64,000 nt of DNA from Tribonema minus (taxonomy: Eukaryota; Sar; Xanthophyceae; Tribonematales; Tribonemataceae), in the NCBI GenBank assembly GCA_017506865.1, contig JAFCMP010000075.1, positions 1 through 64,000 of the forward strand. Direction: 5' to 3'. Within the stretch, counting starts at the first letter, position 1. Each line of letters opens with the position of its first letter. The position numbers and the translations under genes were made by a program. Shown here one piece after another: positions 1,958 through 24,848 of this stretch. The notes beneath the pieces were generated by a model. It searched no databases, had not been told where the DNA came from, and saw nothing but the letters and a program-made list of their open reading frames with translations.

Positions 1958-2341
1958 TGTGGGGAGTGTGCATTTTGCGTGCAATGTTCCCTGCCATTCC
2001 ATGAGTTAGTCTAGCTGCCTTGCAGGGTGCTTGGCAGTTACACAGTTGTCAGCAGTAACTGCCTAGTGTCTGTTCAGAGCAGGAATTTGTGGGAAGATTC
2101 TTCTTGCTTCCAGAAGACCCTTAAGTAGTTTCATTGCAGTTGGATTTGTGTTCAGTCTGGTAGTGCTAGGGAGCACTTGGGGAATAGATATAGTGTTTGG
2201 GGATTGAAGACAAGCCTTGCCTTCTGCTTTTGCTGTTTGTGGTGTCAGCATAGCTCAGCAGTAGCTTGTTGGTGTCAGGCTTGATCAACCTGGCTCAACG
2301 GCTGCTGCTGCAGAACCACAGGAGATTGGGCTAGCTCTTCA
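1958..2341 (+). repeat. 5' LTR
   Basis: Matches 18242-18624 almost base for base, starting TGTGGGGAGTGTGC and ending GCTAGCTCTTCA. It should hold the element's promoter and polyadenylation signals, but I see no convincing TATA box; an AT-richer patch (ATAGATATAG) lies near 2184-2193. The leader that follows contains a possible primer-binding site. Confidence 0.95.
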
Positions 2342-2599
2342 GTTGGAGGAGTCTGTTAGCGTTTTAAACCTCAGGCGTGCAATAAGCGCGTACGGAGCGG
2401 AACAGAGGGGGCACTGCAAGCGGGCTAGCAGTGTCAGGAGGGCGCCGGTCGGGTAGCAACCACAGGCGATTCCAGCGAGCACTGCAAAGAAGTCAGACTC
2501 GTTGCGGCGTATACCACTCGAGAGGGCAGGGGGCTCAGCTGTACCTAGGAGCACCAGCATCACTAGGCAAGGCGGCGCAGACGTGTGCCAGTAGCACTG
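2342..2599 (+). promoter_or_regulatory. Retrotransposon leader with candidate primer-binding site
   Basis: Non-coding leader between the 5' LTR and the first gag ATG. Two bases after the LTR, at 2344, lies TGGAGGAGTCTGTTAGC. It begins with TGG, the complement of a tRNA 3' CCA, as primer-binding sites usually do. I cannot match it to a particular tRNA, so the assignment rests only on position and the TGG start. Confidence 0.4.
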
Positions 2600-4435
2600 A
2601 TGGTCGGGACCATCACGAAGGCAGTGGCCAAGACTCGCTCGCGGAGCTCGAGTTGCAGCAGAGTGGCTGCAGGTTCTGCGGCAACGAAGGCCGGAGCAGA
2701 AGAGACAGGGGCGGGCGCGGCCGGAGCTGCGCCCAGGGGCAACACTAATGCCGCCCTGGCGTACCCGCCAGGCGTCATGGACGCGGCACCTGCCACCGGT
2801 CTCGTGAGGACCCCAGCGGCGGCGGCGGAGCCTGCCGCCATTTTAGGGGGGGAGGATGATCCCAACGCGGCGCACCAGCAGCCGCAGGATCAGGGGGCGG
2901 CGCCCATGGACGGGCAGCCGCACGCGGGCCAGCAGCACCCGACTGCAGACGCACATGGAGGGGCGGCGCCCATGCAGGAGCAGGCGCCGCAACAGCTGCA
3001 GGGGACAGCTATTGGCCACGTGGCGGTGGGCCCGGCGAGGAACGCCAGCGAGGAGCTACGCCGCGCACGCGCCGAGGAGCTCGAGAGGGGCCGGGCTGCA
3101 CACGCCGAGGGGCTCGAAAGGAGTCGGGCGGAACGCGCCGCGCGCACAGCAGCGCGCAGCGCGTCGCTGCCGCCCGCGGCATTCGGAGGTCCCACCGCCA
3201 GTGGGAGCCAGCCTTCACCTGGAGCCGTGGAGCGCGCGGAAGCAGGCCTATCGTCATTCCCTGCGCGCGCAGCCGCCATGGCGGAGACGGCGCGCCAGGA
3301 GGCCACGCAGCGCGCTGCCGCAGCGGCGAACGCGGCGCGCAGAGGAGCCGCTGCCGGGGCTGCGGAAGCGGCGCGCGGCGCCGGCGAGCTACAGTTCGCG
3401 GCGCTGCAAGAGGAGAACGCGGCGACACGCGCCGAAATGCGCAACTCGCTCTCTGCCATGCCCGGCAGTAACGAGCGCAGGCACACGACGCTCGCCGCGG
3501 ACACGGCTAATTTCAGAACTGCCGTGACGGAGGACGCAGCCGCGCTGCGTGGGGACGTCGGCGCCCTCGCGCGCCGATCAGAGGAGGGCCTAACCCAGCT
3601 CGCCCGGAACATGGGCGACCTGGCGCGCCAGATGGCGCTCATGGCCCGTGACGCAGCGGCGCGGGAGCAGGCGGCTCGCGAGCGCGAGCACGAACGCGAG
3701 CAGGCGGCGCGCGAGCACGAGCGCGAGCGCGAGCAAGCGGCGCGCGACGCAGCCGCCGCCATGGATCGGGCGGCGCGCGAGCGCGAGGCCGCGAGGGACG
3801 CGGCGATGCAGCGCATGCTGCTGCAGGCGGTGCAGGATGCCATGGGGGGCGCGGCGCACGCCGCGCCGGGGGGGCGCGGCGCGCCCCAGGCGGCAGACGC
3901 CGCCAGCGCATCGCCCGTGTGGGGCAACAGCGCTCAGGAGGACTGCGCACTGCTCGGCGTGGATTACCTCGCCGGCAGCGGCGCCGGAGGCGGCGGCGGC
4001 GGCGGCAGCAGCGGCGGACCGCCGTCGGATGACGGCAGTGGCCGCAGCGACAGCGACCGCAGCCGCCGCAGCAGCGCGAGCTCGCGCTCCGGCGGCGAGA
4101 CGCGCGCGCAGCGCCAGCAATGCAGGCATCGCCGCGAGCGCCGCGAGCGCAGCGACAGCCGCGACGCCGAGCGCGAAGCTGCAAGGAACAGCTTTGCGCC
4201 GCCACCGCCAACAGCCGCGGGCGCTGGCAGTGGCGGCCGGGGCCGCCGCGACCGGCGCATGCCATCACCGGACGGCGAGAGGGCGGGGCTGGCATCAGCC
4301 GCGTCAGCAGCCTTTAACTCCACCCCGGAGCTGGAGCCGGGGGAGGGCACTTGGGGCCCCGACCGCCGTGTCCCCGCGGGGGAGGTAGCCTCTTGGGGGT
4401 CGTGGACCTCAGCGAGGGGGAAACGGCCGAGCTAG
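2600..4435 (+). CDS. Retrotransposon gag, N-terminal segment (frame broken downstream)
   Basis: The open frame begins upstream of 2600; ATG at 2600 is the first methionine codon (a GTG lies at 2585). About 610 residues, rich in Ala, Arg, Gly and Glu. A strongly charged coiled-coil-like stretch (repeats of AAREREHEREQ type) is encoded near 3640-3800, followed by poly-Gly/Ser and Arg/Ser-rich segments near 3980-4180. The stop at 4433-4435 is probably premature: the same style of protein continues in the next frame from about 4350, near G-rich runs where one-base changes are common. No recognised domain. It is placed in gag by position and composition. Confidence 0.6.
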   Translation: MVGTITKAVAKTRSRSSSCSRVAAGSAATKAGAEETGAGAAGAAPRGNTNAALAYPPGVMDAAPATGLVRTPAAAAEPAAILGGEDDPNAAHQQPQDQGAAPMDGQPHAGQQHPTADAHGGAAPMQEQAPQQLQGTAIGHVAVGPARNASEELRRARAEELERGRAAHAEGLERSRAERAARTAARSASLPPAAFGGPTASGSQPSPGAVERAEAGLSSFPARAAAMAETARQEATQRAAAAANAARRGAAAGAAEAARGAGELQFAALQEENAATRAEMRNSLSAMPGSNERRHTTLAADTANFRTAVTEDAAALRGDVGALARRSEEGLTQLARNMGDLARQMALMARDAAAREQAAREREHEREQAAREHEREREQAARDAAAAMDRAAREREAARDAAMQRMLLQAVQDAMGGAAHAAPGGRGAPQAADAASASPVWGNSAQEDCALLGVDYLAGSGAGGGGGGGSSGGPPSDDGSGRSDSDRSRRSSASSRSGGETRAQRQQCRHRRERRERSDSRDAEREAARNSFAPPPPTAAGAGSGGRGRRDRRMPSPDGERAGLASAASAAFNSTPELEPGEGTWGPDRRVPAGEVASWGSWTSARGKRPS

Positions 4436-5165
4436 TGGCGTATCAGGCGCTGCAGCAAGGTGACGCTCGCCTAACGGGGGCCAGCGACGCGCGCCTGCAT
4501 AGCGAGGAGGGGCCCGTGGCCCTGATCCGCTGGAGGCCGGAGGAGCTCACCACTGGGGGGCCGGTGGACGAGGCCTCCGAGGACCGTGAAGCGGCGAGAG
4601 ATCACCTCGTACGTGTCGGGGAGACGCCGGGCGGCGTCGTACAACTACTGCGGCTGCAAGGCTACTACCGCGTATACGTGCGGCCGACAGCGCAGCAGCG
4701 GCAGCGCGGCGAGCGCTGGGACGCTGCGGCAGCGAGCCTTATGGCCGAGCGGCAGCTGCGCCGCAGGATGCAGCTGCTGCACGTCGCCGTGCTGCGGGCG
4801 TCGAGGGAGGGCACGCCCCAGCAGCAGTTCGGCCCCGGCTTCATCAGGAGGCTGGAGCGCCTGCAGCGGCGGGGCGGAGAGGGGGGGCGCGCCCCATCCC
4901 TCAACAGCAACGCGCCTCTCCTCGAGGTCGAGAGGAGCAGGGCGCTGGCGGAGCGGGCGGAGGCTGCGTGGAGGCCGTGGCTCCACCTGAGCGATGCCGA
5001 CAACAAGGGGCTACGCCTCCAGCACGTACGCGAGGAACGACGGCGCATAAGGGAAAGCGAGACCAGGCGGCGCCTCACCGACCTCTACGGCGCCGAGCTG
5101 CGCGCCGCCGGACTGAGGTTGAGCGCCGCGAGCGACGCCCTGCGCGCGGCGGAGGAAAGCTACTA
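4351..5165 (+). CDS. Retrotransposon gag, second segment (different frame)
   Basis: About 270 residues in frame 1, continuing the first gag segment after a frame change somewhere between 4330 and 4430. The sequence is charged and helical (many Arg, Glu, Leu), for example LRLQHVREERRRIRESETRR near 5010-5060. The frame runs on to 5298, but the true coding frame is lost at the 25-bp duplication at 5141-5190. No named domain recognised. Confidence 0.55.
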
Positions 5166-5190
5166 TGCGCGCGGCGGAGGAAAGCTACTA
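5141..5190 (+). repeat. Perfect 25-bp tandem duplication that breaks gag
   Basis: The 25 bases at 5141-5165 are repeated exactly at 5166-5190. Twenty-five is not a multiple of three, so the copy moves the reading frame by one. Before it, frame 1 reads DALRAAEESYY; after it, frame 2 reads RAAEESYYRGGANHKR. Removing one copy would restore a continuous reading. This is direct evidence that the element copy is mutated, or that the assembly carries a local duplication error. Confidence 0.9.
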
Positions 5191-6272
5191 CCGTGGCGGC
5201 GCGAACCACAAGCGCAACACGGAAGCCGAGAGGGCGCTGCGGGGGCTGCGCGATACGGTCGAGGACGAGCAGCTTGCCCACGACGAGGTGCGGGATAACT
5301 ACCGGCGCGACGCCGACGAGGGCACCATCGACCCTAGCGACCGCATGCGCCGGCTAGCCGAGCAAGCCGCCACGCGGCGGGGCTTCGGCGCCGCCGGGGC
5401 GGGCAACAGCGATGTTGCTGACGCAGTGGCGGCGCGCGCCGCCGCAGCGCGCGCCAACACTGGCAGCGGCGCCGCGGCAGCGGCGTCGGCGTGCGACGCC
5501 GACGCGCGCGCCAACTCCAGCAGCGACGCTGCGGCAGCGCGCCGCTCTGGCACGCGCACCTACAACGTCGCCGAGGCCGCCGCCACAGCCGCTGCCGCCG
5601 CGGCGGCAGCCGCGCACGGCGGCGACCCCTTTTCCGCGCCTCGCGGGATCGGGGCGCCGCTCACGGAGGAGGAGCTCAACCTACTGGGGGTAGGCAGCGT
5701 CATGACATCCATGGTGTTACAAGAGCAAGCGGCCGCAAACGGCAACCGAGCGGCGAAGGGGATGGGGGATGATCACGTGCCGCGCTCCCACCGGGAGCAG
5801 TTCAACGCCATGCTGGCGCTGGACACCAATTGGCGCCGCCGGTATTCCAACTGGTGGGACCGGACACTCGCCGCGGCGGGCGAGGGGGGCGCCGCGCAGC
5901 TAGCGCGGCGCCACATCGAGGCGCAGTTGAGGCAGCGCGCCCGAGACATGTTGGCCAACGCCGACTACGGCGACAGCGACGAGGAGGGTCAGTCTAGCGA
6001 CGACTACCTCAGCGACATGGGGCATCAGGAACTACGCCGTAGAGGGATGCTCGGCGGCAACGGCGCCGGCGACGCGCGCGCGGGCGCGCGCCACACTGCT
6101 GCCGCCGCCAATGCCGCGGCGGAGCGGCGCGGCGGCGCCGGCGACGCGCGCGCGGGCGCACGCAGCGCTGCTGCCGCCGCCGATGCCGCGGCTGAGTGGC
6201 GCGGCGGCGCCGGCGACGCGCGCGCGGGCGTACGCAGCGCTGCTGCCGCCGCCGATGCCGCGGCAGAGCGGC
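5166..6272 (+). CDS. Retrotransposon gag, third segment
   Basis: About 370 residues in frame 2 between the 25-bp duplication and the next frame change near 6272. Begins with a charged helical part (AERALRGLRDTVEDEQLAHD), followed by Ala-rich sequence and a stretch that looks more globular (around 5650-6030, including FNAMLALDTNWRRRYSNWW), then 24-residue Ala/Gly repeats. In frame 2 the sequence after about 6275 turns into unlikely Gly/Arg-rich protein, while frame 3 carries a plausible helical sequence from there. Confidence 0.55.
6057..6272 (+). repeat. 72-bp coding tandem repeat, three copies
   Basis: Three head-to-tail 72-bp units (6057-6128, 6129-6200, 6201-6272), each encoding 24 residues of the pattern GGAGDARAGARSAAAAADAA. 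The second and third copies differ at only a few bases. Related GGAxDARAxxR-AAAA units recur in two pol linkers of the same element. Confidence 0.85.
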
Positions 6273-8747
6273 GTACCGGAGCTGGAGGCACTCCTTGCCC
6301 GGGAGCAGCAGCAGGAGATGGAGCTGCGCGCGGCCCTGAGCCAAATCACCTCCCAGAGAGGCACAGAGGAGTGGTGCTCGGCGGGGGGGGGGATCCTGAC
6401 GGTCAGAGAGTTGGAGGCGCGCTGGGATGTTACCAATGCAGCCGATCGCACGGCCGCACTCACGGCGGAATTACTGCACTTGCAGCACGCGGTGGGGCTC
6501 GCAGAGCGCGGCCGGGCAGCCGACGCAGCGGCGGCGCGCAGCGAAGCCGCCGTGGCTGCGCACCGTTACCAAACCGCAGTCGCAGCAGCGCCAGCGGCGG
6601 TCGTTGCGGCGGCACTGGCAGCACAGGCGGACGCGCGGCAGCACGGCGCCGCTGCCGCCGCCGCGGCCGCCGCCGCCGCCGTGGCGGAAGCAGCTGCGAG
6701 CCGGGAAGCGGCTGCGCGCCGCGGCGCTGCCGCTAGCACCGCCGCCGCCGCCGCCGCGGCGGAAGCAGCTGCGTACCACGACGCTGCTGCCAGCGCCGCA
6801 GCCGCCACCGCCGCCGCGGCAGCAGACGCCGCGACGCGGCGCAAAGCTGCTGCCGCTGCCGCGACGGTTGCGGCGGCTACGCCAGCAAGCGCGCCACACC
6901 ACAGCATGGCCACTGGCGCGCCAGGGCCGTCGGCGCGGGGGACCACTACCCCCAGCCTGGGCGCACTGCACGAGGAGAAGGCGGTCCTCGACGCATGGCT
7001 CAGTAGCATGGCGGAGCAGCGCCACACCATAGAGGGGGAGGAGTACACTCTAGATCGGCAGAGCAGACTGGCAGCACTGATGGCGCGCCAAGTCGAGCTA
7101 CAGCTGGAGCTGCAACGCGTCGAGCACAGCATTCAGCAGCGCACGCCCCTGCAGAGCCGCGGAACGACCTGCCGCGTGGCGGCAGGCGCCGCGCCAGGCG
7201 GCGGCGGCGGCGACGACTCAGACAGCGACGACAGCATGGGCGGTCGCGGGGGAGGCGCAGGGCGCTCAGGGGGGTTCCCGCGGGGACTTCCAGGGGGCGG
7301 AGGCGGAGGCGGCGCTGGCGGCGGCGGCGGCGCAGGGGGGGGTGGTGGCGGCAGCGGGGGTGGGGGCGCTGGCGACCACCACGACTATGGAGGCCCACCT
7401 GCCGGGGCAGGTGGGGGAGGGGGGGGAGGCGGCGGCAGCTCGGAGCCTAGCACAGACGACACAGCGAGCGCGGTAGGCTCAATCTCATCCGGTGCATCCG
7501 CTCTTGCGCACGCAGCGGCGGGCGACTGGGTCCCTAGGACCTCTGGTAACCGGTACTGGGTGGACTTCAACTCCGGCAAGAAGCCGCCTAACCTGTTCTG
7601 TCCCCCCCGTGACTACCAGAAGGACCCCGCATGGCCAATAGAGTCTTTCAAGACGACTCGTAGGCTACTTGAGCAGGCGTGCCACACTCAACTCGCACAA
7701 TACAACTCGCGCAAGCGTACGGATCAAGTAGAGAAGATCTATACTGAGGCTGACATGCAATTCGAGGTGGTTGTTGCTTACTCAACCTTCATCAGGGGGT
7801 GTTTCAGCACCTACTTACCCAAACATGCCAAAATCGCTAGTGATATGAGCATGACCTTAGACAGTGCGCTGGAAACTGCCAAGGACAATGCTGCTAGGAG
7901 GATGCCGGACAACCTCTGCCTCAAGATCTTCGAGAAGACCTTGACGGATGTGGTGTATGTGGCTAACCCTGAACTCTTTGTAATGCAGGTGGAGCTGCTA
8001 AGAGTTGAAGTTGGCGTCGCGCTACGCGACACGCTGTCACCCATAACGCGATTGATCCAGCAGGCAGAGGCACACGTGCCTGCTGATGACAACTTATACA
8101 AATGGAGAATGCATGTCCCCCTGCTCAACTTCTTTAAAGGCACGTGGACAGCATTGCAGCCGCTGTGTGACAGGATACTCCTCAACCCTGACTACAGGCT
8201 GCACACTAAGGGGCCGTACCCCATCACACTGATGCAGATTGTGAACGCAGTGCGAAATGAGAGGGCGGCGCAGGCACACACCGCCGCGCCATACAACCCT
8301 CTAGACGATGGCAGAGGGGGCGGGGACCCCCCCCTGGTAGTAAAGCGAGAAAGTAGTAGGGCGCCAGCTGGCGGCACGCCCGCGGGCAGGCCTGCTATGC
8401 CCGCGGGCACCCCGAGGGAGAGGTTCCGGCCAACCCGAATTAATTACATGATGAAGGAAGGGCAGGGGAGCAACGACACTTTAGAGTGGATGAAGGAAGT
8501 CGTTTGCACAAACTGTAACGGAAAGGGACATGTTGGCCACTGCTGCAAAGTATATCATAAAAATCCCTACAACGCAGATGTTCAAAAAGCTAATGCAGGC
8601 AAGAGGGGCATGGCCAAAACGGAAGCCCACTGCGATTTTATGAACCAAGTGTGGCAGGACTGGCTGGATTCGTCGCCCAGACCTGATCGTAGGGATTACT
8701 TCAAGCAGCGCATGAACGACAAGTACCCTACTAGGAGGCGCCCATAG
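6273..8747 (+). CDS. Retrotransposon gag, C-terminal segment with capsid-like region and CCHC zinc knuckle
   Basis: Frame 3. It contains, in order: a helical segment (VPELEALLAREQQQEMELRA); a very Ala-rich stretch (6480-6900); a poly-Gly stretch (7190-7440); a well-mixed globular region of about 250 residues (7530-8280), the likely capsid part; and a zinc knuckle CTNCNGKGHVGHCC (8505-8546) that fits the CX2CX4HX4C nucleic-acid-binding motif of Gag proteins. It ends at a TAG at 8745-8747, after which the same frame stays open into the protease. The open frame extends upstream to 6111, but that part overlaps the repeats read in frame 2. Confidence 0.8.
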   Translation, partial: VPELEALLAREQQQEMELRAALSQITSQRGTEEWCSAGGGILTVRELEARWDVTNAADRTAALTAELLHLQHAVGLAERGRAADAAAARSEAAVAAHRYQTAVAAAPAAVVAAALAAQADARQHGAAAAAAAAAAAVAEAAASREAAARRGAAASTAAAAAAAEAAAYHDAAASAAAATAAAAADAATRRKAAAAAATVAAATPASAPHHSMATGAPGPSARGTTTPSLGALHEEKAVLDAWLSSMAEQRHTIEGEEYTLDRQSRLAALMARQVELQLELQRVEHSIQQRTPLQSRGTTCRVAAGAAPGGGGGDDSDSDDSMGGRGGGAGRSGGFPRGLPGGGGGGGAGGGGGAGGGGGGSGGGGAGDHHDYGGPPAGAGGGGGGGGGSSEPSTDDTASAVGSISSGASALAHAAAGDWVPRTSGNRYWVDFNSGKKPPNLFCPPRDYQKDPAWPIESFKTTRRLLEQACHTQLAQYNSRKRTDQVEKIYTEADMQFEVVVAYSTFIRGCFSTYLPKHAKIASDMSMTLDSALETAKDNAARRMPDNLCLKIFEKTLTDVVYVANPELFVMQVELLRVEVGVALRDTLSPITRLIQQAEAHVPADDNLYKWRMHVPLLNFFKGTWTALQPLCDRILLNPDYRLHTKGPYPITLMQIVNAVRNERAAQAHTAAPYNPLDDGRGGGDPPLVVKRESSRAPAGGTPAGRPAMPAGTPRERFRPTRINYMMKEGQGSNDTLEWMKEVVCTNCNGKGHVGHCCKVYHKNPYNADVQKANAGKRGMAKTEAHCDFMNQVWQDWLDSSPRPDRRDYFKQRMNDKYPTRRRP
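8745..8747 (+). promoter_or_regulatory. Single amber codon between gag and protease in the same frame
   Basis: TAG is followed directly by GGGGGCGACCTG. The frame downstream has no other stop until the methyltransferase shift at about 10.7 kb and no ATG for at least 230 bases. Gag and Pol in one frame separated by one UAG followed by G is the gammaretrovirus readthrough arrangement. I infer readthrough here; an ordinary nonsense mutation in a fused Gag-Pol is the alternative. Confidence 0.5.
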
Positions 8748-10685
8748 GGGGGCGACCTGGGGGACAACGCTCCCGTCCCCGGGGAAGCAAAGAGGGAGGG
8801 AATAGGCGTAGAGAGTAGACGTAGTACAAGGGCCGACGCAGCGCCGAGTACGCGCGCGCGGCAGCGAAAGCGCGAGCGCATAGCTGCACTAACTTCAACT
8901 TCAACTGATAATCAGGGACTCGCCGCAGGAAGCGCTGCGACCCCCCCAGCAACTTCAACTTCAACTGCTGATGAGTCACATGCAGTGACGCAATATGGTA
9001 GCGGCGCGGGCGCCACTACAACAACACTTAACACTAAACGGCATAGGGTGTCGTGGGCGGACAAATCTGACGTAAAGAACGACGCTAATAGTGATCTTAT
9101 CTCGCAGGCTGCGCAGGGGCGCAGCACTCTCTCTGAAGGGGGGGAGGGACCTCAGGCACCCACAGTAGCACCTGATTTTAGCGACGATGAATTTGCGGGA
9201 GCGTACACTAGCGAGAGCGAATGTGACGACTCTGACTCTGACTCAGGCCATGCAACCTCAACCAACAGAGTTGACGTTTGGAAAGACTGGAAACCCGCCG
9301 CCGAGGGCAACAACGACCCCCCAGCGACATCAGTTCACCACAATGTCACTCACGCTGACCCCTTCATTTCAGCGTTGCATAGTGAGACTCACCTTGACCC
9401 TGCAGAGCGCAAGCTCAACATCGCACATGTGCAGGAAATGGAAGAATTGCAAGCGCTGCGCATTGGCGCAGCATCGCACCAGCAACGAGGACTACAACCT
9501 GGCACCATTACGTGCTACGGCAGAGCCAAGATGCTGTTCGACTTCGTCGTCAACGCTCGGCGACAACTTCAACATCGGCCACCACCCAAAATTCGCTGCA
9601 ACTCGTACGACACCGGCTGCGGCGCATTGTGCGTCGTCGGCGCGCTCGTGAAGCGGCTGTTGGACGACGGCTCCATCGACCCCGACTCCATACACATCAT
9701 GGAGCACCCGCGCATCCTTACGGGATTCGACCTCGCCAAGGGGAGCACGCGCGTCCACATGACAGCCACGCTGAGCATCACCTTCCACGCAGCAAGACCC
9801 CACACACCAGTAAAGCTCACGTGGATCTTCCTCGTGGTGCCTAACCTGGGGGTCCCCATGCTGCTAGGAGGGGACGTCATCTCGCTCCACAACGTTGACC
9901 AGCGCCAAGGCGAGCACACTGGCACGGTGGACCTGCACTTCCTTGCGGGCCACAAGCCGATGGCGCTGGCGTCCAGAGGGTCGGCGCACGAGGTCGTGCC
10001 GACCCTCAGAGTGGCGGCGGGGGGGGATCCTGCTGAGCAGTGGGTAGCGGTGGCGGCGCGCACGGCAGACGTCGGCGGCGACCGGCCGCGCTGGGTCAGC
10101 ATACGCATATGCCATGCGGACGGCAAGACACCGGTGCGGCCCACGGACGCTGGCGCGCACGCGGGCATGCGCGTGGAGGTGCGCGTGCGGCACCCCGAGC
10201 TAGCGGCGGACAGGCTGCTGGTGGAGCTCACGCCGGACGGTTCGGTGCCTGTAGTGCTGCAGTGTCTAGGGGGGGACGTGAGACTGCGGCCAGGCGCCGC
10301 GGTGGGGCGTGCCTTGGGCATGCTGGAGACTCCTGCGGAGGAGCTCCCCTACGACGCGGACGGCAATCCATGCCTAGCGCGGCTGCGCAAGCCCGTGGTG
10401 ATGGAGATGTACTGCGGAGCGGGGGGGTTCACGCACGGAGCCAAGGAGTACTTAAACACTTCTCTAGCTACGGACTTCAGCCAGAGCGCGTGCGCGCTTT
10501 ACGCGCGCAATCACCCCGCGGCGCGGGTGCTTCAGGGGGACGCCAACGAGCGGGGAGTGCAGCTAGCGCTCATCGCGGAGGCGACGCGGCTGGGGGTGGA
10601 GGTGGGGCTCGGCGGGCCGCCCTGCACACATTTCAGCCAAGCAGGCAAGCGGGAACGCACGAGGGCTGGCAATGCGTGCTTAGCA
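8748..10685 (+). CDS. Retrotransposon pol N-terminal part: aspartic protease and first half of DNA methyltransferase
   Basis: Frame 3, open without a stop from the gag amber codon. A low-complexity acidic region with two TSTST-type patches is followed by a retropepsin-like domain. The active-site triad DTG is at 9609-9617 (SYDTGCGALCVVGALV), and the flap or C-terminal landmark LLGGDVIS is at about 9861-9884, matching the usual LLG-D pattern. From about 10395 the C5-methyltransferase begins, with motif I at 10401-10440 and catalytic motif IV at 10611-10640. The frame then runs into a stop at 10722-10724; the rest of the enzyme is in frame 2. Confidence 0.8.
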
Positions 10686-11390
10686 TGCTGCTGGTACACG
10701 CGACGATTCCATCGCTGCGCATGACCGTTCTGGAGAACGTTCTTGGGTTGCTGTCCACGCCGCAGTGGCAGCACACGCTTGCTGCCGCGCGCGCGCTGGG
10801 CTTCAGTTTCAGCCACCATGTCGTCAGGGGCGACGATTGTGGCCTACCCACTATGTGGCGGCGCGTCTTCCTAGTGTTCACGCGGGGGCGCCCCGCGGGC
10901 AGCGGGTTGGCGGAGGAGGACGCAGCGGATTGGGCGGGGGTACATGCTCGGCTGCAGACGCTCCTGGCGGCCGAGAGGGGGGTAGAGGGGTACTGCAGCG
11001 TCGCGGAGGCAACCGGCGTCAGCGCTCAGGAGGTACCGTTCTACCGCTTCTGCGCGCGCAACGTGGTGGCGCCGGAGATACTATCCACGCGGCAGCCATG
11101 CCCCACGCTGCGCAGCTCGTGCCTACGGCTGCCTTACAGCGGCTCCAACGGCGGCAGCGGCGTGCTGAGGCATAACGCGCGCAACGCGACGGAGCTCCCT
11201 GCGGAGGTAGCGGCGGCGCGCCATCTCACGTGGCAGCAGCTGCTGCAGGTTAGCACATTCGAGGGCTACGACTGGCCGGAGCCGGCGCAGGGCGCGCGCA
11301 GCGACAGCATGCGCATGCTTGCCAACGCGGTGCCGCCGCGCATGTCGCGGTACGTGTGGGAGGCGCTGTTCAGAGCGGGCGCGCTGCACT
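10395..11390 (+). other. C5-cytosine DNA methyltransferase domain (all core motifs, frame-split)
   Basis: Motif I is MEMYCGAGGFTHGAKEY (AdoMet binding, 10401 on), followed by ATDFSQSACALYARNHPAA with the acidic motif II position and a conserved NHP. Motif IV is GGPPCTHFSQAGKR, with the catalytic Cys codon at 10623-10625. In frame 2 follow motif VI LENVLGLL (about 10730), motif VIII CGLPTMWRRVFLVFTRG (about 10838-10890), a PTL-containing motif IX region (about 11100), and motif X ANAVPPRMSRYV (about 11319). At about 330 residues this is a minimal enzyme without regulatory domains. The frame changes from 3 to 2 near 10675-10690, where sense joins as NACL to SMLLVHA. Such enzymes methylate C5 of cytosine in DNA. 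The target sequence cannot be read from the sequence. Confidence 0.9.
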
Positions 11391-14300
11391 TGGCGGGAGA
11401 GCAGCGCACGCGGGGGGGCGCAGCAGCGGAGCCCCTCAGCGAGCAGCAGCAGGGGGAGATCCTTGACGCGCTGGCGGCGCGCTTGGAGCCGGTGTCGGTA
11501 CTGCAAGCGCAGCTGCGCGGCCGCGAGACGCGCAACCCCTGGCGAGTTGAGGCGGGCGTCGCGGTGGACCGTGCGCTGGCGGCGCTAGCGGCGGCAGACA
11601 ACGAGATGTATATGGCGTACAGGACGGCTTGGCGGGAGCCGCTCATTGATGCAGAGGAGCACTACAGCTTGAGCGTTGCGGAGGGCGCGGCGCGGTACAG
11701 CACGGAGGTGGGCGCCTCGGCGCCCGTCCTCCAGTTTACGCGCCACATAGCCGATAGGCGGGGGTGGAACTTGGGGGTGGGCAGCGGGTGCGCGCCAATC
11801 CCCTACGACGGCGGCTTCTGCGACATCATGCGCAGGGGGCTCGCACAGGTGCGCGCGGCGCACGCTGAGCGGAGCAAGGGGGGCTCCATAGGCGCGGAGG
11901 GGGGCTCCGCACACATGGAGCGCTACATCAAGATATGGCATCGCGACGTCGCGCACGACGCGCGCACAGCCGCGCGCGATGCTGCCGCTGAGCTGAGCGG
12001 CGGCGGCACTGGCGGCGCGCACGCGGGCGTGCGCAACGCTGCTGCTGCCGCTGCTGCCGCGGCAGGAGAGCGCGGCGGCAACACGGGTGCTGCCGCTGAG
12101 CTGAGCGGCGGCGGCACTGGCGGCGCGCACGCGGGCGTGCGCGACGCTGCTGCTGCCGCTGCTGCCGCGGCGGGAGAGCGCGGCGGCAGCATGGGTGCTG
12201 CCGCTGAACTGGGCAGCGGCGGCGCTGGCGACATGCGCGCGTATGCGCGCGATGCCGCCGCTGCCGTGGAGCAATGGCGCGGCGGCGTCGCAGGTGCTGG
12301 TGCTGCCGGCGAGCTGAGCGGCGGCGGCGCTGGCAGCGCGCGCGCGGGCACGCGCAGCGCTGCCGCTACCGCTGCTGCCGCAACAGAGAGGCGCGGCGGC
12401 GGCACGAGTGCCGCCGCTGGACTGAGCGGCGGCGGCGCCGGTGACGCGCGCGCGGGCGCGCGTGGCGCCGCTGCTGCCGCTGCGGCTGGGCACAGGGCCG
12501 CCTCTGACGTCGCAGCACGACGCACCGCCATGGTGGCAGATCACGGCGACGCCGCTGCAGAAGCCGGCGCCGCGGGCGGCGCAGCTACTAGGGCGGAGCG
12601 CAAGCGCTCGGACGCGGAGGCGAGCGAAACGCGCGCGCGCCTGAAACGTCAACTGCGGGCGCAACTAGCACCGGTGCTCTCGCCAGCCGCGCGGCGGCGC
12701 GCGACACCCCTGATGGTGTGCGCCGCTGCGCTGGCCCTCGGCGTGGAGGTTGACGGCACGGAGCAGCAGGCGGCGACGCTGCTGCACGTGGGGGCATTCA
12801 TGGGGCTGTTTGACAGCATGCCGCCGGCGGAGAAGCTCGAGGCCCCGCTCGGCGAGGTGGTCAGCGACAACCCGGCGGTGGCGGCAGTGCTAGCGTCGGC
12901 ACGCCAGCAACTCGCACCTCACCTGCTGAAGGTGAACGTGCAAATAGGGGGGTGGTCAGCGGACCAAGTGGCGCGGCTGGCGTTCGAGCTCGCGCTCTTC
13001 GCCGACGACTTCTCTAAGGACAAGTGGGACCTGGGGTACTGCACCACGCTGCCTTTCCGCATCGCGCTGCGCGAGGGCGCGCACCCGGTGGCAGACCGGC
13101 CGTACCGGTACAGCCCCCAGATGACAGCGCTCATCCGCGTGGAGGTAGACAAGCTGCTGGCGGCGGGCATCATACGCCCTTCACAGTCAGAGTGGAGCTC
13201 CCCGGTGGTGGGCGTGATGAAGCCCGACGGCACGGCGCGCATCACGGTCAACTTCAGGAAGCTCAACGCCATGAGCATCATCCCCAAGGTGCCGCTGCCC
13301 TTGATCGAGGACATCTTCAACTCCCTCGGCGGCGCGCGACTCTACCTCGGCATCGACATCAGCGGCGCGTTGTTTGTGTCGGCGATCGACGCGGCAGCGG
13401 TGCCGCTCACCGCCATGGCCACGTCATTCGGCCTACACGAGTGGACGCGCTGCCCGCAGGGCGCTGCCGGCGCGCCGGGCCACTTCACGCGGCTGATGGA
13501 GATCGTGCTACAGGGCATCGAGCGCGCGCAATCCTTCATCGACGACGTCATCGCGCACTCGCCGGACATGGACATGCACCTCGACGACCTACACGCACTC
13601 ATGCTGCGCATGCGCGAGCACGGCATCAAGCTGGCGCCAGCGAAGATGCACGTCGGCTGCACGCGTATCAAGTTCCTGGGGCACATAGTTGAAGTTGGCG
13701 GCATCCGGCCTGACCCCGACAAGGTGACTGCACTCGTGCAGATGCCGGTGCCGGAGGACATTTCCGCCTTGCGCAGCTGGCTGGGCCTGGCTAATTATTA
13801 CAGGCGATTTGTCAAGGGGATGGCGGAAGTCATCGCGCCGCTGACGGCGCTGATGGCGAAGGACGTGCCCTTTCACATGGGGGAGGCGCAGCTGGCGGCG
13901 CTGGAGGAGGTCAGCATGGCGCTGTCGTTACACGCGCTGATGACCTTCCCGGACCACGCAGCCGCCGGCGACGGCACGCGGCCGTTCATCCTAGCCACGG
14001 ACGCGTCGAAGCTCGGCTTTGGCGCGGTGCTGTCGCAGGCGGACGCGGCGGGGGTGGAGCACCCCATCGCGTTTGCCAGCCGCGCGACGCTTAAGCACCA
14101 GCGCAACTGGACCACCACGGACCTGGAGGCGTTCGGGGTGGTGTTTGGGGTCAAGAAATTTCGGCATCTGCTGTGGGGTACGCCGTTCATCATCGACACC
14201 GACCATCGCGCGCTCCTGTGGCTCGAGAGCTGCAAGGACAAGACGGCGCGGCTGGCGAGGTGGTTTGAGTTCCTAGGGGCGTTCCCGCATACCATACGGT

Positions 14301-17300
14301 ACAAGGAGGGCACGCGGAACGTCAACGCGGACGGCTTCAGCCGTAACCCTATACCAGCGACGGCAGCAGATGCAGCGGAAGAGGCGGCGGACGAGCTCGT
14401 GGAGGCGTACCGCGCGGCCGATGCCGCGGCGGCGGCGCCTGGCTTGTCAGACCGCGCGGCGCGCGTCGCGGCCGCGATGATCGAGGACTTGTGCGCGCGC
14501 ATCCACTGCGCGCTGGAGACCTCCGAGGAGGGAGACGGGAGCAGCCCGCACGGGGGCGGGGGCGCTGCCCTAGGGGATTGGTCTTGGACCGACACACGCT
14601 CAGCAGGCGTCGGCGCGACACACATTTACGCGCTGGAGCTTGGGCGCACGCGCGCGGCGTCGCGCGCAGCCGCGCGAACGGCCACCGCAGCAGCAGCGCG
14701 CGGCAGCGACAGTACTGTCGCAGCTGCAGCTGGTGCTGCGGCAGTACGAGCTGCGGAGGGGGGCGATGCGCGGCGCGGCGGCGCGGCGGCGGCGCAGCGC
14801 GGCGACGCGGCTGCTGCTGCTGCCGCCTCTGCCGCAGCGGCGCTGCGCGGCGGCGCGGCGGCGGCGCAGCGCAGCGACGCGGCGGCGGCGCAGCGCGGCA
14901 ACGGTGCTGCTGCTGCTGCCGCCTCTGCCACAGCGGCGCTGCGTGGCGGCGCGGCGGCGGCGCAACACGGCGACACCGCCACTGCTGCTGCCGCTGCCAC
15001 TGCGGCGGCAGCCGCTGCCGCTGCTGCCGGATGGCGCGGCGTTGCTGCCACCGCCACGGGCGGCAGCCTCAGAGGCGACGCTATTGGCAGCGGGAGTGCG
15101 GAGTACCGCGGCGCAGCGGGCGCCGCGGCGGGAAGCAGCGACGCGCTGAGCGCGGAGCACCGTTACGGGGCAAGCATGGGCGGGTGGAACGGCGCTGCAG
15201 GGGCAGTGCCGCCGCCCGTCACTGACACAGCAGCGGTAGCGGGGGTGGAGCACCGCTACGGGGCAAGCATGGGCGGGCGGAACGGCGCTGCCGGGGCAGT
15301 GCCACCGCCCGTCACTGATACAACAGCGGTTGTGGGGGCGGAGCTCAATCGCGGGGGCGCGGGCGCCGCTGAACGGAGCGATACCGACACCGCGGCGGGG
15401 CGCGGCGGCGCACGCGACGCGCACACAGTTGCGCGCGGCGCCGCCGCTGCTACTGCCGCCGCGGCAGGAGAGCGCGGCGGTGCGCACGACGCGCGCGCGG
15501 ATACGCGCGGCGCTGCTGCTGCCGCCGCTACGGCAGGAGAGCGCGGCGGCGCGCACAACGCGCGCGCGGGTACGCGCGGCGCCGCTGCTGCCGCCGTTGC
15601 GGCAGGAGGGCGGGGCGGCGCGCACAACGCGCGCGCGGGTACGCGCGGCGCCGCTGCCGCCGCGGGAGGGGCGCGCGGCGCGGAGAAGACACCTTCTTCT
15701 CCGCCGCCACGGGGGGGTCTTGAGGGGGCGCGCGGCGCGGAGGAGGCGGCCCCTTCTCTGCCACGTCGGCCGCCCACACCAGAGCCCTCGGGCTTGAGCG
15801 CCGGCGGCGCTGCCGCAGCCAAGATGGCTGCGGCGGGCGCCGCTGCCGCGCACCGGCGCGCCGCTGATCAGTCAGCAGGCGCCGACGCGGCGCTGAGCAC
15901 TGACTCGCGCACGCTCGGCGCCATGACGGCGGCGGACTGGCGCGCAGCCCAAGACGCAGATCCCTTCTGCAGCGCCATGATCTCCTACTGCGGCGACGCT
16001 ACTGCCCTTCCCTGCGACAAGGAGCTGCTGGCTCTTGTCAAGAAGCATAGGGAGGCGTGCAGCTTGGAGTGGGCTGCGGGGGTGAAGCTGCTGTGCCGGC
16101 GCGAATGCGGACTTGACGGCGAGCTCGGCGACGCCGTGCTTGTCATACCGCTCGCGCTGCGCGACAAGGTGCTACACTGCTTGCACGGGGAGGTGTGGGC
16201 GGGGCATCAGGGGGTTAGGAGGACCATGGAGCTGGTGCAGCGCCATGGGTGGTGGCCGGGATGGAGCATCTCAGTCACTCACTGGGTGGAGCACTGCTGG
16301 CCGTGCCAGGCGCGCAAGGGCAGCGGCCAGCGCGCGCGCATGCCCACCATCTACAGGGAGCTACCACCGCACCCATTTCACACGGTTTCAACGGACTGCT
16401 TCGGGCCGCTGCCAGTTTCGGCCAGCGGCAGCATGTACGTGCACGTGTTCATGTGCCTGCTGACGTCACACGTCGCAGTGTACGCGGTGCGGGAGGGGGA
16501 GAACACAGCGGTGCGGGCGGCAGAGCTACTGGTGGACGAGTACAGCACGCTCTACGGCATGCCACACACGCTGCTCAGCGACCGGGGGTCGCAGTACTCG
16601 GCGGAGGTGGCGCGCGAGGTGTACGCGCTCATGGGAGTGCGCAAGCTATACACCACGGCGTACCATCCGCAGGCGAACGGCCAGGCGGAGCGCTTCATGA
16701 AGTCGCTCGCGCAGATGCTGGCGATGGCAGTGAGCAGCGCTCAGAGCGACTGGGATCGGTGGATCAACAACGTCGCCTTCGCGCACAACTCACGCTCGAA
16801 CCGCGAGCGCAGCTGCTCGCCGTTCTTGCTGGTGATGGGGAGGGAGCCGCGGGTAGCGCTCCACACCATTTTGGGGCAGGTTGCAGAGGGGAGCAAGCGG
16901 CGCGCCAGCGACAGCACCTGCGCAATTCTCGCGGAGATGCAGGGGCGGCAGGCGTCTGCCATGGCGATGCTGCACAGGCGCGCGGAGCTCAAGCGCGAGC
17001 GCATGCGCGGCAACGCGGCGCTCGCGCGCGCTTTCAACTTGCGCATCGAGCCGGAGCGGGGCGATCTCGTGTGGGTACACTCAAAGCCCATCACGCACAC
17101 GGCAACTTCTAGCGCGGAGCACGGCGCCACGTGGCGCGCAGTGCTCAGCAGGAAGATGCTAGATCAGTGGGTGGGGCCTTACAAGGTCATAGCGGTTGGG
17201 CCAGTGTATCACGGGGATATGCTGGTGCAATCAAACGTGGTGCTGCTGGAGATGGACGGCGGTCCTACTCGGGTCACGATGTGGCGCGTCAAGCCGTGTC

Positions 17301-18109
17301 GTGACCCTAGCGGAGCGAGCGGCAAGCCCGTGGGGCTGCCTGAGGGCTACGCGCGCTACTTGCTCAGCAGGAATCCGCTCGCGGCGCCGGCGCCGCGATC
17401 GGTCACGGAGGACGACGTTACGTGGGCGTCGGATCGGCATAGAGTGGAAGCGGTGGTGGGGCACAGGGTTGTGCGGGACCGCAGGGGGAGGCCGGGGGAG
17501 TTACAGTATCTGGTGCGCTGGGAGGGCGCGCACGTGGCGGATACCTGGGAGTCGGCCAGTCTCCTTGACGCGTGCGAGCACGCAACGACGGAGTACTGGA
17601 ACACGGCGAACGCTGCGGGCGTAGCGCTTGCCGACGGCGGCGCATCAGTTGTGCAGGGGCGCTTGCGGCAGGCGCGGCAGCGCGCCAGTGGCGAGGGGCC
17701 TACAGTTAGGCTTGCGGGGGGCAAATACAAGTTGCCACAGGGGGTTCGGCGGTTTAGGGGGGTGCCCACTGCAGAGTTGCTTTCTGGCCCAGAAATCATG
17801 GGGGCTAGGGTATTAATGCGGTGGCGCTTCCCGGAGTTGCCTATGGGGGCGCGGCTGCAGTGGTGCGAGGGGGTCGTACGCCGGGGCGTATCTACTCTAC
17901 GCAAGAGCAGCGGCGCTCAGTCGAGGCGTGCACGGGGCAACACGCTGAACATTTATTGGGTTGGCGATCCGCGCGCGCGCGAGACGCCGCTGTTGCTAGA
18001 CAAGTACTTGGACAGCAATGAGTTTGCTGCGCCCAAGGACTGGTGGTTTCTCTTCGGGGACGAGAAGCAGTTGGGGATTTGGGGCAAGGTGGTCACAGGG
18101 GGGGGGTAG
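10686..18109 (+). CDS. Retrotransposon pol: methyltransferase C-terminal half, reverse transcriptase, RNase H, integrase, chromodomain
   Basis: A single open frame (frame 2, open from 10040 but meaningful from about 10686) of about 2470 residues. After the methyltransferase come a linker with Ala/Gly repeats (11980-12500), RT with first Asp at 13355 (LGIDISGA) and catalytic FIDD at 13535-13546, RNase H with TDAS at 13997-14008 and DTDHRALLW at about 14197, a second long Ala/Gly repeat linker (14640-15850), integrase with HHCC zinc site and D, D, E codons at 16394, 16580 and 16688, then a chromodomain at about 17430-17590. About 170 further residues contain an unassigned C-terminal region with LMRWRFPELPMGARLQWCEG. 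RT has FIDD where YIDD or YVDD is commoner. The protein is probably made as a Gag-Pol fusion, since no separate start is evident. Confidence 0.88.
11983..12495 (+). repeat. Ala/Gly coding repeats between methyltransferase and RT
   Basis: Imperfect units encoding patterns such as AAAELSGGGTGGAHAGVR followed by a poly-Ala run and GERGG. Two neighbouring units (from about 11989 and 12091) are nearly identical; later copies drift to AGDARAGARGAAAAAA. It is a flexible linker with no globular domain, and it shares the DARAGAR core with the gag repeats. Confidence 0.8.
13045..14350 (+). other. Reverse transcriptase and RNase H domains
   Basis: Ty3/gypsy RT blocks in order: ADRPYRYSPQM, LLAAGIIRPSQSEWSSPVV, TVNFRKLNAMSIIPKVPLP, LGIDISGA with the first metal-binding Asp, FIDDVIAHS with the catalytic pair, IKFLGHIV and LRSWLGLANYYRRFVKG. 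RNase H follows with ATDASKLGFGAVL, TTDLEAFGVVFGVKKFRHLL, IDTDHRALLWL and NADGFSR. Every catalytic residue I can place is present, so this half of pol looks intact. Confidence 0.93.
14640..15850 (+). repeat. Long Ala/Gly repeat linker between RNase H and integrase
   Basis: About 400 residues of low complexity in three styles: RGGAAAAQRGDAAAAA units (14760-15000); two copies of a 93-bp unit encoding EHRYGASMGGWNGAAGAVPP (about 15157-15249 and 15250-15342); and several units of about 22-23 residues, GGAHNARAGTRGAAAAA (15400-15680). Linkers of this length between RNase H and integrase are unusual for chromoviruses. Confidence 0.8.
16165..17000 (+). other. Integrase core with HHCC zinc-binding domain
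   Basis: The zinc domain has His in CLHGEVWAGHQG and Cys in EHCWPCQARKG. The catalytic core carries STDCFGPLP (Asp codon 16394-16396), LLSDRGSQY (Asp 16580-16582) and QANGQAERFMKSL (Glu 16688-16690), the DD35E triad with 35 residues between the second Asp and Glu. The spacing is correct, so the integrase fold appears intact. It would insert the cDNA into host chromatin. Confidence 0.93.
17430..17595 (+). other. Chromodomain at the C-terminal side of integrase
   Basis: The residues run VEAVVGHRVVRDRRGRPGE, then LQYLVRWEGAHVADTWES and ASLLDACEHATTEYW. This matches the chromodomain pattern: an initial Val/Ile-rich strand, YLVRW with the aromatic-cage Trp, and the TWES segment followed by the C-terminal helix. 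In chromoviruses this domain reads histone methylation and biases integration to heterochromatin, consistent with the position about 1.3 kb from the telomere. Confidence 0.88.
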
Positions 18110-18241
18110 TGTGCGCAGCGCATACATGACCGCCTTGCACAGGTGTGTGTGGGGGGGGTGTTGCATACACATGCAAGCTCTGTTGTAGTGGTCTTGTTTG
18201 CTCCCTGCTTGTAGGGACACAAGCGGAGCTCCGGGGGCGAT
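18110..18241 (+). other. Retrotransposon 3' untranslated region
   Basis: It lies between the pol stop codon (TAG 18107-18109) and the 3' LTR. G-runs occur around 18096-18106 and 18148-18158. The bases just before the LTR, GGAGCTCCGGGGGCGAT, contain only a short purine stretch, so the polypurine tract is weak or atypical. Confidence 0.5.
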
Positions 18242-18624
18242 TGTGGGGAGTGTGCATTTTGCTTGCAATGTTCCCTGCCATTCCATGAGTTAGTCTAGCT
18301 GCCTTGCAGGGTGCTTGGCAGTTACACAGTTGTCAGCAGTAACTGCCTAGTGTCTGTTTAGAGCAGGAATTTGTGGGAAATTCTTTTTGCTTCCAGAAGA
18401 CCCTTAAGTAGTTTTATTGCAGTTGGATTTGTGTTCAGTCTGGTAGTGCTAGGGAGCACTTGGGGAATAGATATAGTGTTTGGGGATTAAAGACAAGCTT
18501 TGCCTTCTGCTTTTGCTGTTTGTGGTGTCAGCATAGCTCAGCAGTAGCTTGTTGGTGTCAGGCTTGATCAACCTGGCTCAACGGCTGCTGCTGCAGAAGC
18601 ACAGGAGATTGGGCTAGCTCTTCA
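18242..18624 (+). repeat. 3' LTR
   Basis: Pairs with 1958-2341. Differences are seven substitutions and one missing base near 18381. Five of the seven have C or G in the 5' LTR and T or A in the 3' LTR. The 4-bp target duplication TGTG follows at 18625-18628. Confidence 0.95.
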
Positions 18625-24161: not shown

Positions 24162-24848
24162 TGTTTTCACACCAGCTCGCGCGCGTTTGAAGTTGAACCT
24201 GCCCTTGAAGTTGGTTCGAACAGAAGGAGCTTTTGTGCGGGGGCGGTGGACTGGCGAAACCTGCTGTTGGGTGAGTGGTACGTACCTCAAACTACTTCTA
24301 CGCATGCATCGACAACTGGTGTACCATCCACACGCACACACTTTCGTGCTGATCAGAACTTGTGAAGAAATGCACAAGTTCGATGCGCTTTGCCTTACAG
24401 CAAGTCGTCATTACTGCAATTTTCCCCAGCATCGAGCGACAATATTGTCACATATTGCTGAGTTATCTGGCTCAATGGTCTTGAAATGCTTGATGCTCAA
24501 TTTTCAAGCTGGAAGGACATCACTAGCGGTCTAACATCACGATTCCATGCAACGTAGCATGGATGCAAGGCTCTGCCCCTCTCCCGACTTCATCATTACT
24601 CTAGATCCTCCCCAGCATCGAGCGACCATGTTGTCACATGTTGCTAAGCTACCTGGCTCTATTATGCTGGAATGCTTGTTGCTCAATTTTCAAGCTGGGA
24701 GGACATCATTTGCAGTCTAGCACCGCACCATGTGAATGCGTGCAAAATCTAGCAATCATGCAGACCGTCTTTGAACGGTGCTTGCCCAATGAATGTATAC
24801 AAGCATCAGATGTGACACTCCAGTTTGTACATGTGTACGCCGCAGGAC
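24162..24848. other. Divergent promoter region of PrmA-like and DNA ligase genes, with a direct repeat
   Basis: It separates the start of the minus-strand PrmA-like gene from the start of the plus-strand ligase. The main feature is a direct repeat: 24424-24540 and 24610-24728 are alike over about 115 bp, sharing for instance CCCCAGCATCGAGCGAC and GCTCAATTTTCAAGCTGG. No obvious TATA box. Confidence 0.55.

What the first reader, a model, noticed from the sequence alone, without database searches (positions are those of the whole stretch)
10395..11390. A chromovirus that carries its own C5-cytosine DNA methyltransferase
The sequence shows motifs I, IV with the PPC catalytic Cys, VI, VIII and X in order, between the retropepsin and the reverse transcriptase of one LTR element. 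DNA methyltransferases captured by retrotransposons are known in dinoflagellates and charophyte algae, in distinct retrotransposon classes. This host seems to be neither (TTAGGG telomeres, intron-rich GT-AG genes), so it may be another capture. Inference: the element could methylate its own cDNA or genomic copies, either to hide from host sensing or to restrain toxicity, and the chromodomain would place it in heterochromatin.
Basis: partly seen in the sequence, partly recalled or inferred. Interest (0 to 1): 0.92.

Follow-up and report, generated by a model that had tools for sequence, protein, structure and literature searches.

The report
Algal retrotransposons with captured DNA methyltransferases
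A jumping gene of the Ty3/gypsy type in an unnamed alga carries its own DNA-methylating enzyme domain, and so do many related jumping genes in that genome, which makes this a large new case of elements that took over a mark normally used to silence them.

Summary
Window 1958-18624 is an LTR-bounded Ty3/gypsy element with a chromodomain, and a C5-cytosine methyltransferase (DNMT, PF00145) lies between protease and RT. In this copy the DNMT is broken: motifs I and IV are in one frame, VI, VIII and X in another. Sister copies with an unbroken frame exist, and 72 of 81 RT matches of the window's clan have a DNMT match upstream, so it is no chance insert. Four capped searches merge to 259 DNMT loci (fragments and four stand-alone genes included). 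Seven RT families carry one: six met through their DNMT, the seventh through its RT. A/B run protease-DNMT-RT; E/F run DNMT-protease-RT. Retroelement DNMTs group together (98/94; 92/95 on a shorter stretch) and agree with the RT backbone, favouring one ancient capture. They are not Dnmt3-like, unlike the published Klebsormidium Gypsy case. The LTRs are nearly CpG-free, the body CpG-rich; CpG transitions between copies are raised 1.4-3.4-fold. The host seems to be an alga with a red-type plastid. Verdict: a new variant of a known kind; activity untested.

The parts
1958..2341 (+). 5' LTR (384 bp, TG...CA), 2 CpG where 21.9 are expected
18242..18624 (+). 3' LTR (383 bp), 7 substitutions and 1 indel from the 5' LTR; TGTG outside both LTRs
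5931..8747 (+). gag-like ORF with a zinc-knuckle-like motif at 8505-8543 (named from the motif, recalled; no Pfam hit)
9603..9881 (+). retropepsin-like protease motifs (DTG ... LLGGD)
   Evidence: motif only, no Pfam hit for this family
10398..10667 (+). DNMT N half (Pfam stretch), motifs I and IV (PPC), frame of ORF 8748-10724
10724..11344 (+). DNMT C half, motifs VI to X, frame of ORF 10037-18109 (frame broken relative to the N half in this copy)
13040..14350 (+). reverse transcriptase and RNase H; best solved-structure match Ty3 RT
16139..17050 (+). integrase (H2C2 zinc domain and DDE core); best match Ty3 Gag-Pol
17444..17602 (+). chromodomain C-terminal to the integrase
   Evidence: Pfam Chromo, E=6.5e-8, residues 2470-2522 of the 10037-18109 frame

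Best explanation
The window holds one broken copy of a Ty3/gypsy LTR retrotransposon with a chromodomain, whose polyprotein includes a C5-cytosine DNA methyltransferase domain. The domain was most likely taken up once by an ancestor of this host's Ty3/gypsy elements and inherited with the RT through at least seven families, with one later change of order relative to the protease. It belongs to no assigned DNMT class and is not Dnmt3-like by profile. Most likely mechanism (inferred): the DNMT is made with Pol and methylates the element's own double-stranded cDNA or fresh insert, mainly at CpG. The new copy then carries a mark of silent host DNA from the start, while the CpG-free LTR promoter escapes it. 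Shown: domain, motifs, position, retention in the clan, agreeing trees, CpG pattern of the window family. Not shown: enzyme activity, substrate, timing, benefit.
For: Domain and order. Retention: 72 of 81 clan A/B RT rows and 70 of 98 E-type RT rows have a DNMT match upstream on the same strand within 6 kb; 41 of the 115 rows cover at least 350 of 370 query residues without a stop. Family G, near which no search had matched a DNMT, has one in the single stretch read. Selection: dN/dS of the DNMT is 0.09, 0.18 and 0.22 between subfamily pairs. Catalytic columns (PC, ENV, RxR) are invariant in the 11 rows of A1, 9 of them retroelement (G is not in A1). Single origin: retroelement DNMTs A-F form one clade at 98/94 and A-G at 92/95 (under the starring threshold), where the host's own Dnmt2-like exon joins DNMT2 at 100/99; the DNMT and RT trees share the backbone (A,B)|(D,(C,E,F)). 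CpG: LTR o/e 0.09 and 0.05, a sister LTR 0.09, against a mean of 0.60 and a minimum of 0.15 in 557 overlapping GC-matched 384-bp stretches of the window; transitions at CpG exceed those at other C in 13 of 13 copy pairs, which share rows and so are not independent.
Against: The window's own DNMT frame is broken, and that of sister L029 too. dN/dS of the DNMT is 0.32-0.58 in four pairs of closer copies, higher than for RT where both were measured (C: 0.58 against 0.18; E: 0.32 against 0.12; B subfamilies: 0.22 against 0.12), and 0.53 and 0.26 in two wider pairs. dS of the wider pairs is near saturation. Family G has STRC in place of PPC at motif IV, so catalysis may be lost there (one locus). 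Coding-region CpG is not depleted (o/e 1.14), so there is no sign of heavy long-term CpG decay of the body. One search had no non-element control, and coding constraint may add to the CpG excess. The class is read from profile scores and short trees without Dnmt3, Dnmt5 or CMT rows. Two domain orders would also fit two captures.
Confidence: 0.55

Rival explanations
1. Two or more independent captures: clan A/B took up a DNMT after the protease, and clan C-G another one between gag and protease.
For: Different domain order: B has PR 609-700, DNMT 871-1189, RT 1573- (L048); E has DNMT 673-820, PR 1236-1319, RT 1663- (L044); F has the order of E by motif. DNMT identity of L030 to C, D, E and F is only 21-23%, no higher than to a haloarchaeal virus enzyme (25.9%).
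Against: Retroelement DNMTs form one clade at 98/94 and 92/95, and the DNMT and RT backbones agree.
Confidence: 0.25
2. The DNMT acts on RNA, for example the primer tRNA or the element's own transcript, in the way of DNMT2.
For: With a single family-A domain as query the best solved-structure matches are DNMT2 / tRNA C38 methyltransferases (E about 8e-8). PMC5890265 raises RNA methylation for SymbioLINE-Dnmt (discussion read).
Against: The domain does not group with DNMT2, although the host's own Dnmt2-like exon does; motif IV is GGPPCTxFS in family A, not PPCQP[FY]T as in 1g55 and L004. The CpG pattern points to DNA.
Confidence: 0.15
3. The domain restrains the element (self-silencing to spare the host) rather than hiding or protecting it.
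For: The body is CpG-rich and shows raised CpG transitions between copies, as expected if copies become methylated.
Against: The LTR promoter is nearly CpG-free, which would exempt the promoter from self-silencing.
Confidence: 0.2
4. Chance insertion or passenger gene in one copy.
For: The window copy's DNMT frame is broken.
Against: Sister copies, 72 of 81 clan RT rows, in-frame fusion in sisters, and dN/dS below 0.25 between subfamilies.
Confidence: 0.01

Closest known systems
KnitGypsy-Dnmt3 of Klebsormidium nitens (PMC5890265, parts 1-4 of 7 read)
   Same: Ty3/gypsy element with a C5 DNMT domain inside the Pol polyprotein, several copies, purifying selection
   Different: There the DNMT is Dnmt3-class and the repeats are arranged as in DIRS (paper's text; PMC12344493 calls the streptophyte element LTR Copia). 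Here the DNMT is not Dnmt3-like by profile, an ordinary LTR pair flanks the element, a chromodomain is present, two domain orders exist and seven RT families carry the domain.
SymbioDIRS-Dnmt3 and SymbioLINE-Dnmt of Symbiodinium (PMC5890265)
   Same: Hundreds of DNMTs in retroelements of one genome; DNMT and RT trees congruent in DIRS; two orders of domains in DIRS; SymbioLINE DNMTs are an orphan lineage
   Different: Other retroelement orders (DIRS with tyrosine recombinase, LINE); here Ty3/gypsy with a DDE integrase
Retrotransposon-encoded DNA methylases as reviewed in PMC6338049 (passages seen)
   Different: Adenine and cytosine enzymes are lumped there, and for the cytosine enzymes it cites only de Mendoza et al. 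2018 in the passages I saw; a wider Ty3/gypsy precedent is therefore possible
Orphan DNMTs of PMC12344493 (section 5 and passages read)
   Same: Eukaryotic DNMTs that fall in none of the families DNMT1/2/3/5/6
   Different: Names SymbioLINE and giant-virus cases; the parts I saw report no Ty3/gypsy orphan DNMT
Orchid Gypsy elements with an AlkB RNA demethylase (PMC9289625, abstract and passages seen)
   Same: Large Gypsy elements that fixed a nucleic-acid-modifying enzyme
   Different: Demethylates m6A in RNA; additional ORF; other enzyme fold

Membership tests
Ty3/gypsy LTR retrotransposon | Pol order RT-RNaseH-integrase, RT closest to Ty3 | tested here: met
   Pfam order; best PDB matches Ty3 RT 4ol8 (E=2.1e-54) and, for the integrase, Ty3 Gag-Pol 7q5b (1.6e-19)
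Ty3/gypsy LTR retrotransposon | Paired LTRs TG...CA with target duplication | tested here: met
   LTR matches also bracket the two 96% sister copies on C212 and C290
Chromovirus | Chromodomain C-terminal to the integrase | tested here: met
   Pfam Chromo E=6.5e-8 in the window, 9.1e-7 and 7.9e-5 in family B (the last is under the curated cut-off). The C termini of families C, D, E and F were not scanned for it.
Chromovirus | RT inside the chromovirus clade | not tested
   No reference chromovirus RT was put in a tree; PMC12477816 (passage seen) reports chromodomain-bearing Gypsy elements of a brown alga that are not chromoviruses
C5-cytosine DNA methyltransferase | Motifs I, IV (PC), VI (ENV), VIII (RxR), X in order | tested here: met
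   in the window split over two frames; in family G motif IV reads STRC
C5-cytosine DNA methyltransferase | Methylates DNA | not testable with these tools
   needs an assay
KnitGypsy-Dnmt3 | DNMT nearest to Dnmt3/DRM | tested here: not met
   L030 alone against PDB at E<=1: 22 matches (DNMT2, DNMT1, bacterial enzymes), no DNMT3 or DRM. Profile A1 at E<=0.01: 60 matches, HhaI 5e-29, DNMT2, HaeIII and DNMT1 far ahead of DRM2 at 7e-4, no DNMT3A/B; A1 holds two stand-alone HhaI-like rows that may lift HhaI. No Dnmt3 row was in a tree.
KnitGypsy-Dnmt3 | DIRS-like repeat structure | tested here: not met
   Plain LTR pair
DNMT2 | Groups with DNMT2 | tested here: not met
   host L004 joins DNMT2 at 100/99, the retroelement DNMTs do not

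The most novel reading that the evidence does not exclude
In this alga most or all Ty3/gypsy lineages depend on an element-encoded C5 methyltransferase of a new orphan class. The elements methylate their own CpG-rich bodies and have purged CpG from their LTR promoters so as to escape their own mark. Part of the host's 5mC would then be written by retrotransposons rather than by host DNMTs.
Probability: 0.22. Interest if true: 0.88.

Novelty: new variant of a known kind. Interest (0 to 1): 0.72.

Why it matters
Cytosine methylation is a usual weapon against transposons. The C5-DNMT-bearing retroelements described in the paper I read come from dinoflagellates and one charophyte, and their purpose is unknown. 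A further host with some 259 merged DNMT loci, at least seven Ty3/gypsy families that carry the domain, 72 of 81 clan RT rows with it, two domain orders, one family with an altered catalytic motif, and LTRs nearly free of CpG gives a natural series for testing what the enzyme is for. Long-read methylation calls on this one genome could decide between self-methylation, self-restraint and an RNA role.

Tried and rejected
Chance insertion: rejected. Programmed frameshift at the DNMT: not supported, since L030, L032 and L034 run through in one frame; treated as a lesion of this copy. Viral or prokaryotic donor: pattern-based scans, two peptide patterns each, found no relative for clan A/B in viral contigs or in prokaryote genomes, and for C/E/F two weak viral matches, 25% and 24% over residues 31-163. 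Among the ten phage rows listed for family A identity was 24-26%. My first idea of two captures, from the two domain orders, lost weight when the retroelement DNMTs formed one clade. My idea that family G lacks a DNMT was wrong. Host name: not obtained; the 18S search never ran. Nearest-homologue search in the protein database: not possible. PF12047 gave no match, but its control rang nowhere, so it says nothing about a host DNMT1. No structure was predicted, because the stated list of structure prediction does not name loci taken with the fetch from genomes or the genome search. LTR age: no mutation rate, so none given.

Counts and dropped rows. One search used 93 typed rows of the 103: 81 at 57% identity or more and 12 at 35%, judged apart; the window itself and nine short pieces were left out, and a few of the 81 rows may be pieces of one element. 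It held them against rows. One search used 98 of the 99 rows and merged positions typed; rows that lie beside a listed row were left out. The 259 loci are matches merged within 1.5 kb on one strand. They include L001-L004, which showed no retroelement probe hit in their 3.5 kb, and fragments; identical copies on short contigs may be assembly duplicates. The searches scored only part of their candidates (123 of 378, 111 of 397, 113 of 447). The 70 of 98 is low partly because type-C DNMTs were scarcely scored. The 20 stretches were chosen around DNMT matches; RT was found in 20 of 20, which is no unbiased rate, and families A-F were met in this way. One viral row (UViG27511) was skipped; L050 and L054 were not used.

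Full report
WHAT IS THERE. The window is the start of contig C75 of an unnamed 158.2-Mb genome in 554 contigs. It begins with a TTAGGG-type telomere. Positions 1958-18624 are one LTR retrotransposon: LTRs of 384 and 383 bp with TG...CA ends, 7 substitutions and one indel apart, flanked by TGTG on both sides. Inside lie a gag-like ORF with a zinc-knuckle-like motif (5931-8747), protease motifs (9603-9881), the DNMT (10398-11344), RT-RNaseH, integrase and a chromodomain. The RT and integrase match Ty3 best among solved structures, so it is a Ty3/gypsy element with a chromodomain.

THE DNMT IS REAL BUT BROKEN HERE. Pfam finds PF00145 in two pieces: E=2.7e-10 in the protease frame and 6.5e-4 in the RT frame, the latter just under the curated cut-off. 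Motifs I and IV (PPC) are in the first frame, motifs VI, VIII and X in the second. Sister copies read through without a break: L030 (E=6.6e-19), L032 (1.5e-17) and L034 (1.7e-21); sister L029 is broken too. The L030 domain aligns over about 90% of its length to the ten best phage and archaeal-virus C5 methylases at 24-26% identity; 12 of the 127 phage records with a match reach 80% coverage. So the enzyme fold is sure, and this copy's is inactive as it stands.

IT IS A PROPERTY OF THE ELEMENTS. Besides the window itself, the DNMT DNA has two full-length matches at 96% in the genome and more distant ones; LTR matches bracket both. Of 81 RT rows at 57% identity or more to the window RT, 72 have a DNMT match upstream on the same strand within 6 kb. 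With an RT of family E, 70 of 98 do, which is low partly because type-C DNMTs were hardly scored. Merging four capped searches gives 259 DNMT loci, fragments and four stand-alone genes included. RT families A to F were met in the 20 stretches fetched around DNMT matches, so they carry a DNMT by choice. Family G was met through its RT; no search had shown a DNMT near its 12 rows, yet the one 1-kb stretch read has one (PF00145 E=4.1e-10), with STRC where the others have PPC or APC.

TWO DOMAIN ORDERS. In A and B the protease precedes the DNMT. In E and F the DNMT precedes the protease. In C, D and G the protease was not located. The two orders follow the deep split in both trees.

ORIGIN. The DNMT and RT trees share the unrooted backbone (A,B)|(D,(C,E,F)); the tool warns of long branches. 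With viral enzymes and two stand-alone host genes as company, all retroelement DNMTs put in (A-F) form one clade at 98/94. On the shorter motif I-VIII stretch, with DNMT1, DNMT2 and HhaI fragments and G added, A-G form one clade at 92/95, which the tool marks as not shown and not rejected; A-F without G are not a clade there but are not rejected as one (p-AU 0.138). The host's Dnmt2-like exon joins DNMT2 at 100/99 as it should. No Dnmt3, Dnmt5 or CMT row was included, and HhaI is the only cellular bacterial one, so I read this as favouring one capture, not proving it. Against PDB, L030 alone matches DNMT2, DNMT1 and bacterial enzymes and no DNMT3 or DRM at E up to 1. The profile scores HhaI, DNMT2, HaeIII and DNMT1 far above DRM2, with no DNMT3A/B row; two HhaI-like stand-alone rows in that profile may lift HhaI. 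The class is therefore orphan and not Dnmt3-like.

SELECTION AND CpG. dN/dS of the DNMT is 0.09 (L030/L032), 0.18 (L030/L034) and 0.22 (L039/L048), with dS 1.4-1.85 and so near saturation; L032/L034 is saturated; two wider pairs give 0.53 and 0.26. RT for L039/L048 is 0.12. Between closer copies the DNMT gives 0.42, 0.57, 0.58 and 0.32, and RT 0.18 (C) and 0.12 (E), so the DNMT is the less constrained domain. The LTRs hold 2 and 1 CpG where about 22 and 20 are expected; a sister LTR holds 2 against 21.6, and a 163-bp piece of a more distant LTR 1 against 8.4. None of 557 overlapping GC-matched stretches of the window downstream of the element is as poor (minimum 0.15). The coding body has o/e 1.14. 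In 13 of 13 copy pairs transitions are commoner at CpG than at other cytosines, by 1.36 to 3.36; the pairs share rows, the three B pairs rest on 4-9 CpG changes each, and there was no non-element control. That suggests some CpG methylation of copies. LTRs of the other families were not seen.

MECHANISM. Shown: domain, place, retention, selection, CpG pattern. Inferred: the DNMT is made with Pol and methylates cDNA or the new insert at CpG, giving it the look of silent host DNA; the chromodomain may send it to heterochromatin; the CpG-free LTR lets the promoter escape. Whether this hides the element, shields it from a nuclease or restrains it cannot be told from sequence. An RNA role is a live rival, because single-sequence PDB matches are led by DNMT2.

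HOST. Light-harvesting genes are present (92 exon-wise matches); RbcS gives 0 matches, with a control that rang; SBP gives 0 matches, but no control could ring; rbcL appears only as two short fragments. This fits an alga with a red-type plastid, such as a haptophyte, cryptophyte or ochrophyte. The telomeric motif CCCTAA is reported for the haptophyte Phaeocystis globosa (PMC11347835, passages seen). The species is unknown.

WHAT IS KNOWN. PMC5890265 (parts 1-4 of 7 read) describes SymbioLINE-Dnmt, SymbioDIRS-Dnmt3 and KnitGypsy-Dnmt3, and cites Iyer et al. 2011 (not read) for an earlier DNMT-RT link. PMC6338049 (passages) states that methylase-bearing Ty3/Gypsy and DIRS elements, adenine and cytosine enzymes taken together, occur in stramenopiles, red and green algae and charophytes. 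PMC12344493 (section 5 and passages) lists orphan DNMTs without Ty3/gypsy cases in what I read. PMC5963040 on a haptophyte's transposons has no word beginning with methyltransferase or methylase in its main text. The right filing is a new variant of a known kind.

Noticed in passing
L055 (C462:6300-7299): Family G DNMT has STRC where the other families have PPC or APC at motif IV; the 12 RT rows of this family at 35% lie in open frames of 1446-3455 aa with no stop inside the match. It may be a domain kept without catalysis.
   Followed up: partly
L001-L003 (C223, C181): Stand-alone C5 methylase ORFs of 367-390 aa, HhaI/phage-like (FPCVGLS); L001 has four relatives at 30-32% in viral contigs.
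   Followed up: partly
L004 (C523): Exon of a Dnmt2-like gene; groups with human DNMT2 at 100/99.
   Followed up: yes
window 30443-30496: Interstitial (TTAGGG)9 array, 170 bp after the end of the DNA ligase ORF 29374-30273.
   Followed up: no
window 24816-30273: DNA ligase exons (PF04675, PF01068) of what looks like an intron-bearing host gene, with a weak UBA-like stretch at the N terminus.
   Followed up: partly
window 6050-6294, 11872-12486, 14768-15567: Alanine-rich repeat expansions inside the gag and pol frames of the element; a family-B copy has similar stretches.
   Followed up: no
L044, L045: Protease-like stretch of families E and F has DCGA instead of D[ST]GA at the active site.
   Followed up: no
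L039 (C101:632500-642400): Two family-B copies sit head to head, their long frames about 320 bp apart.
   Followed up: no
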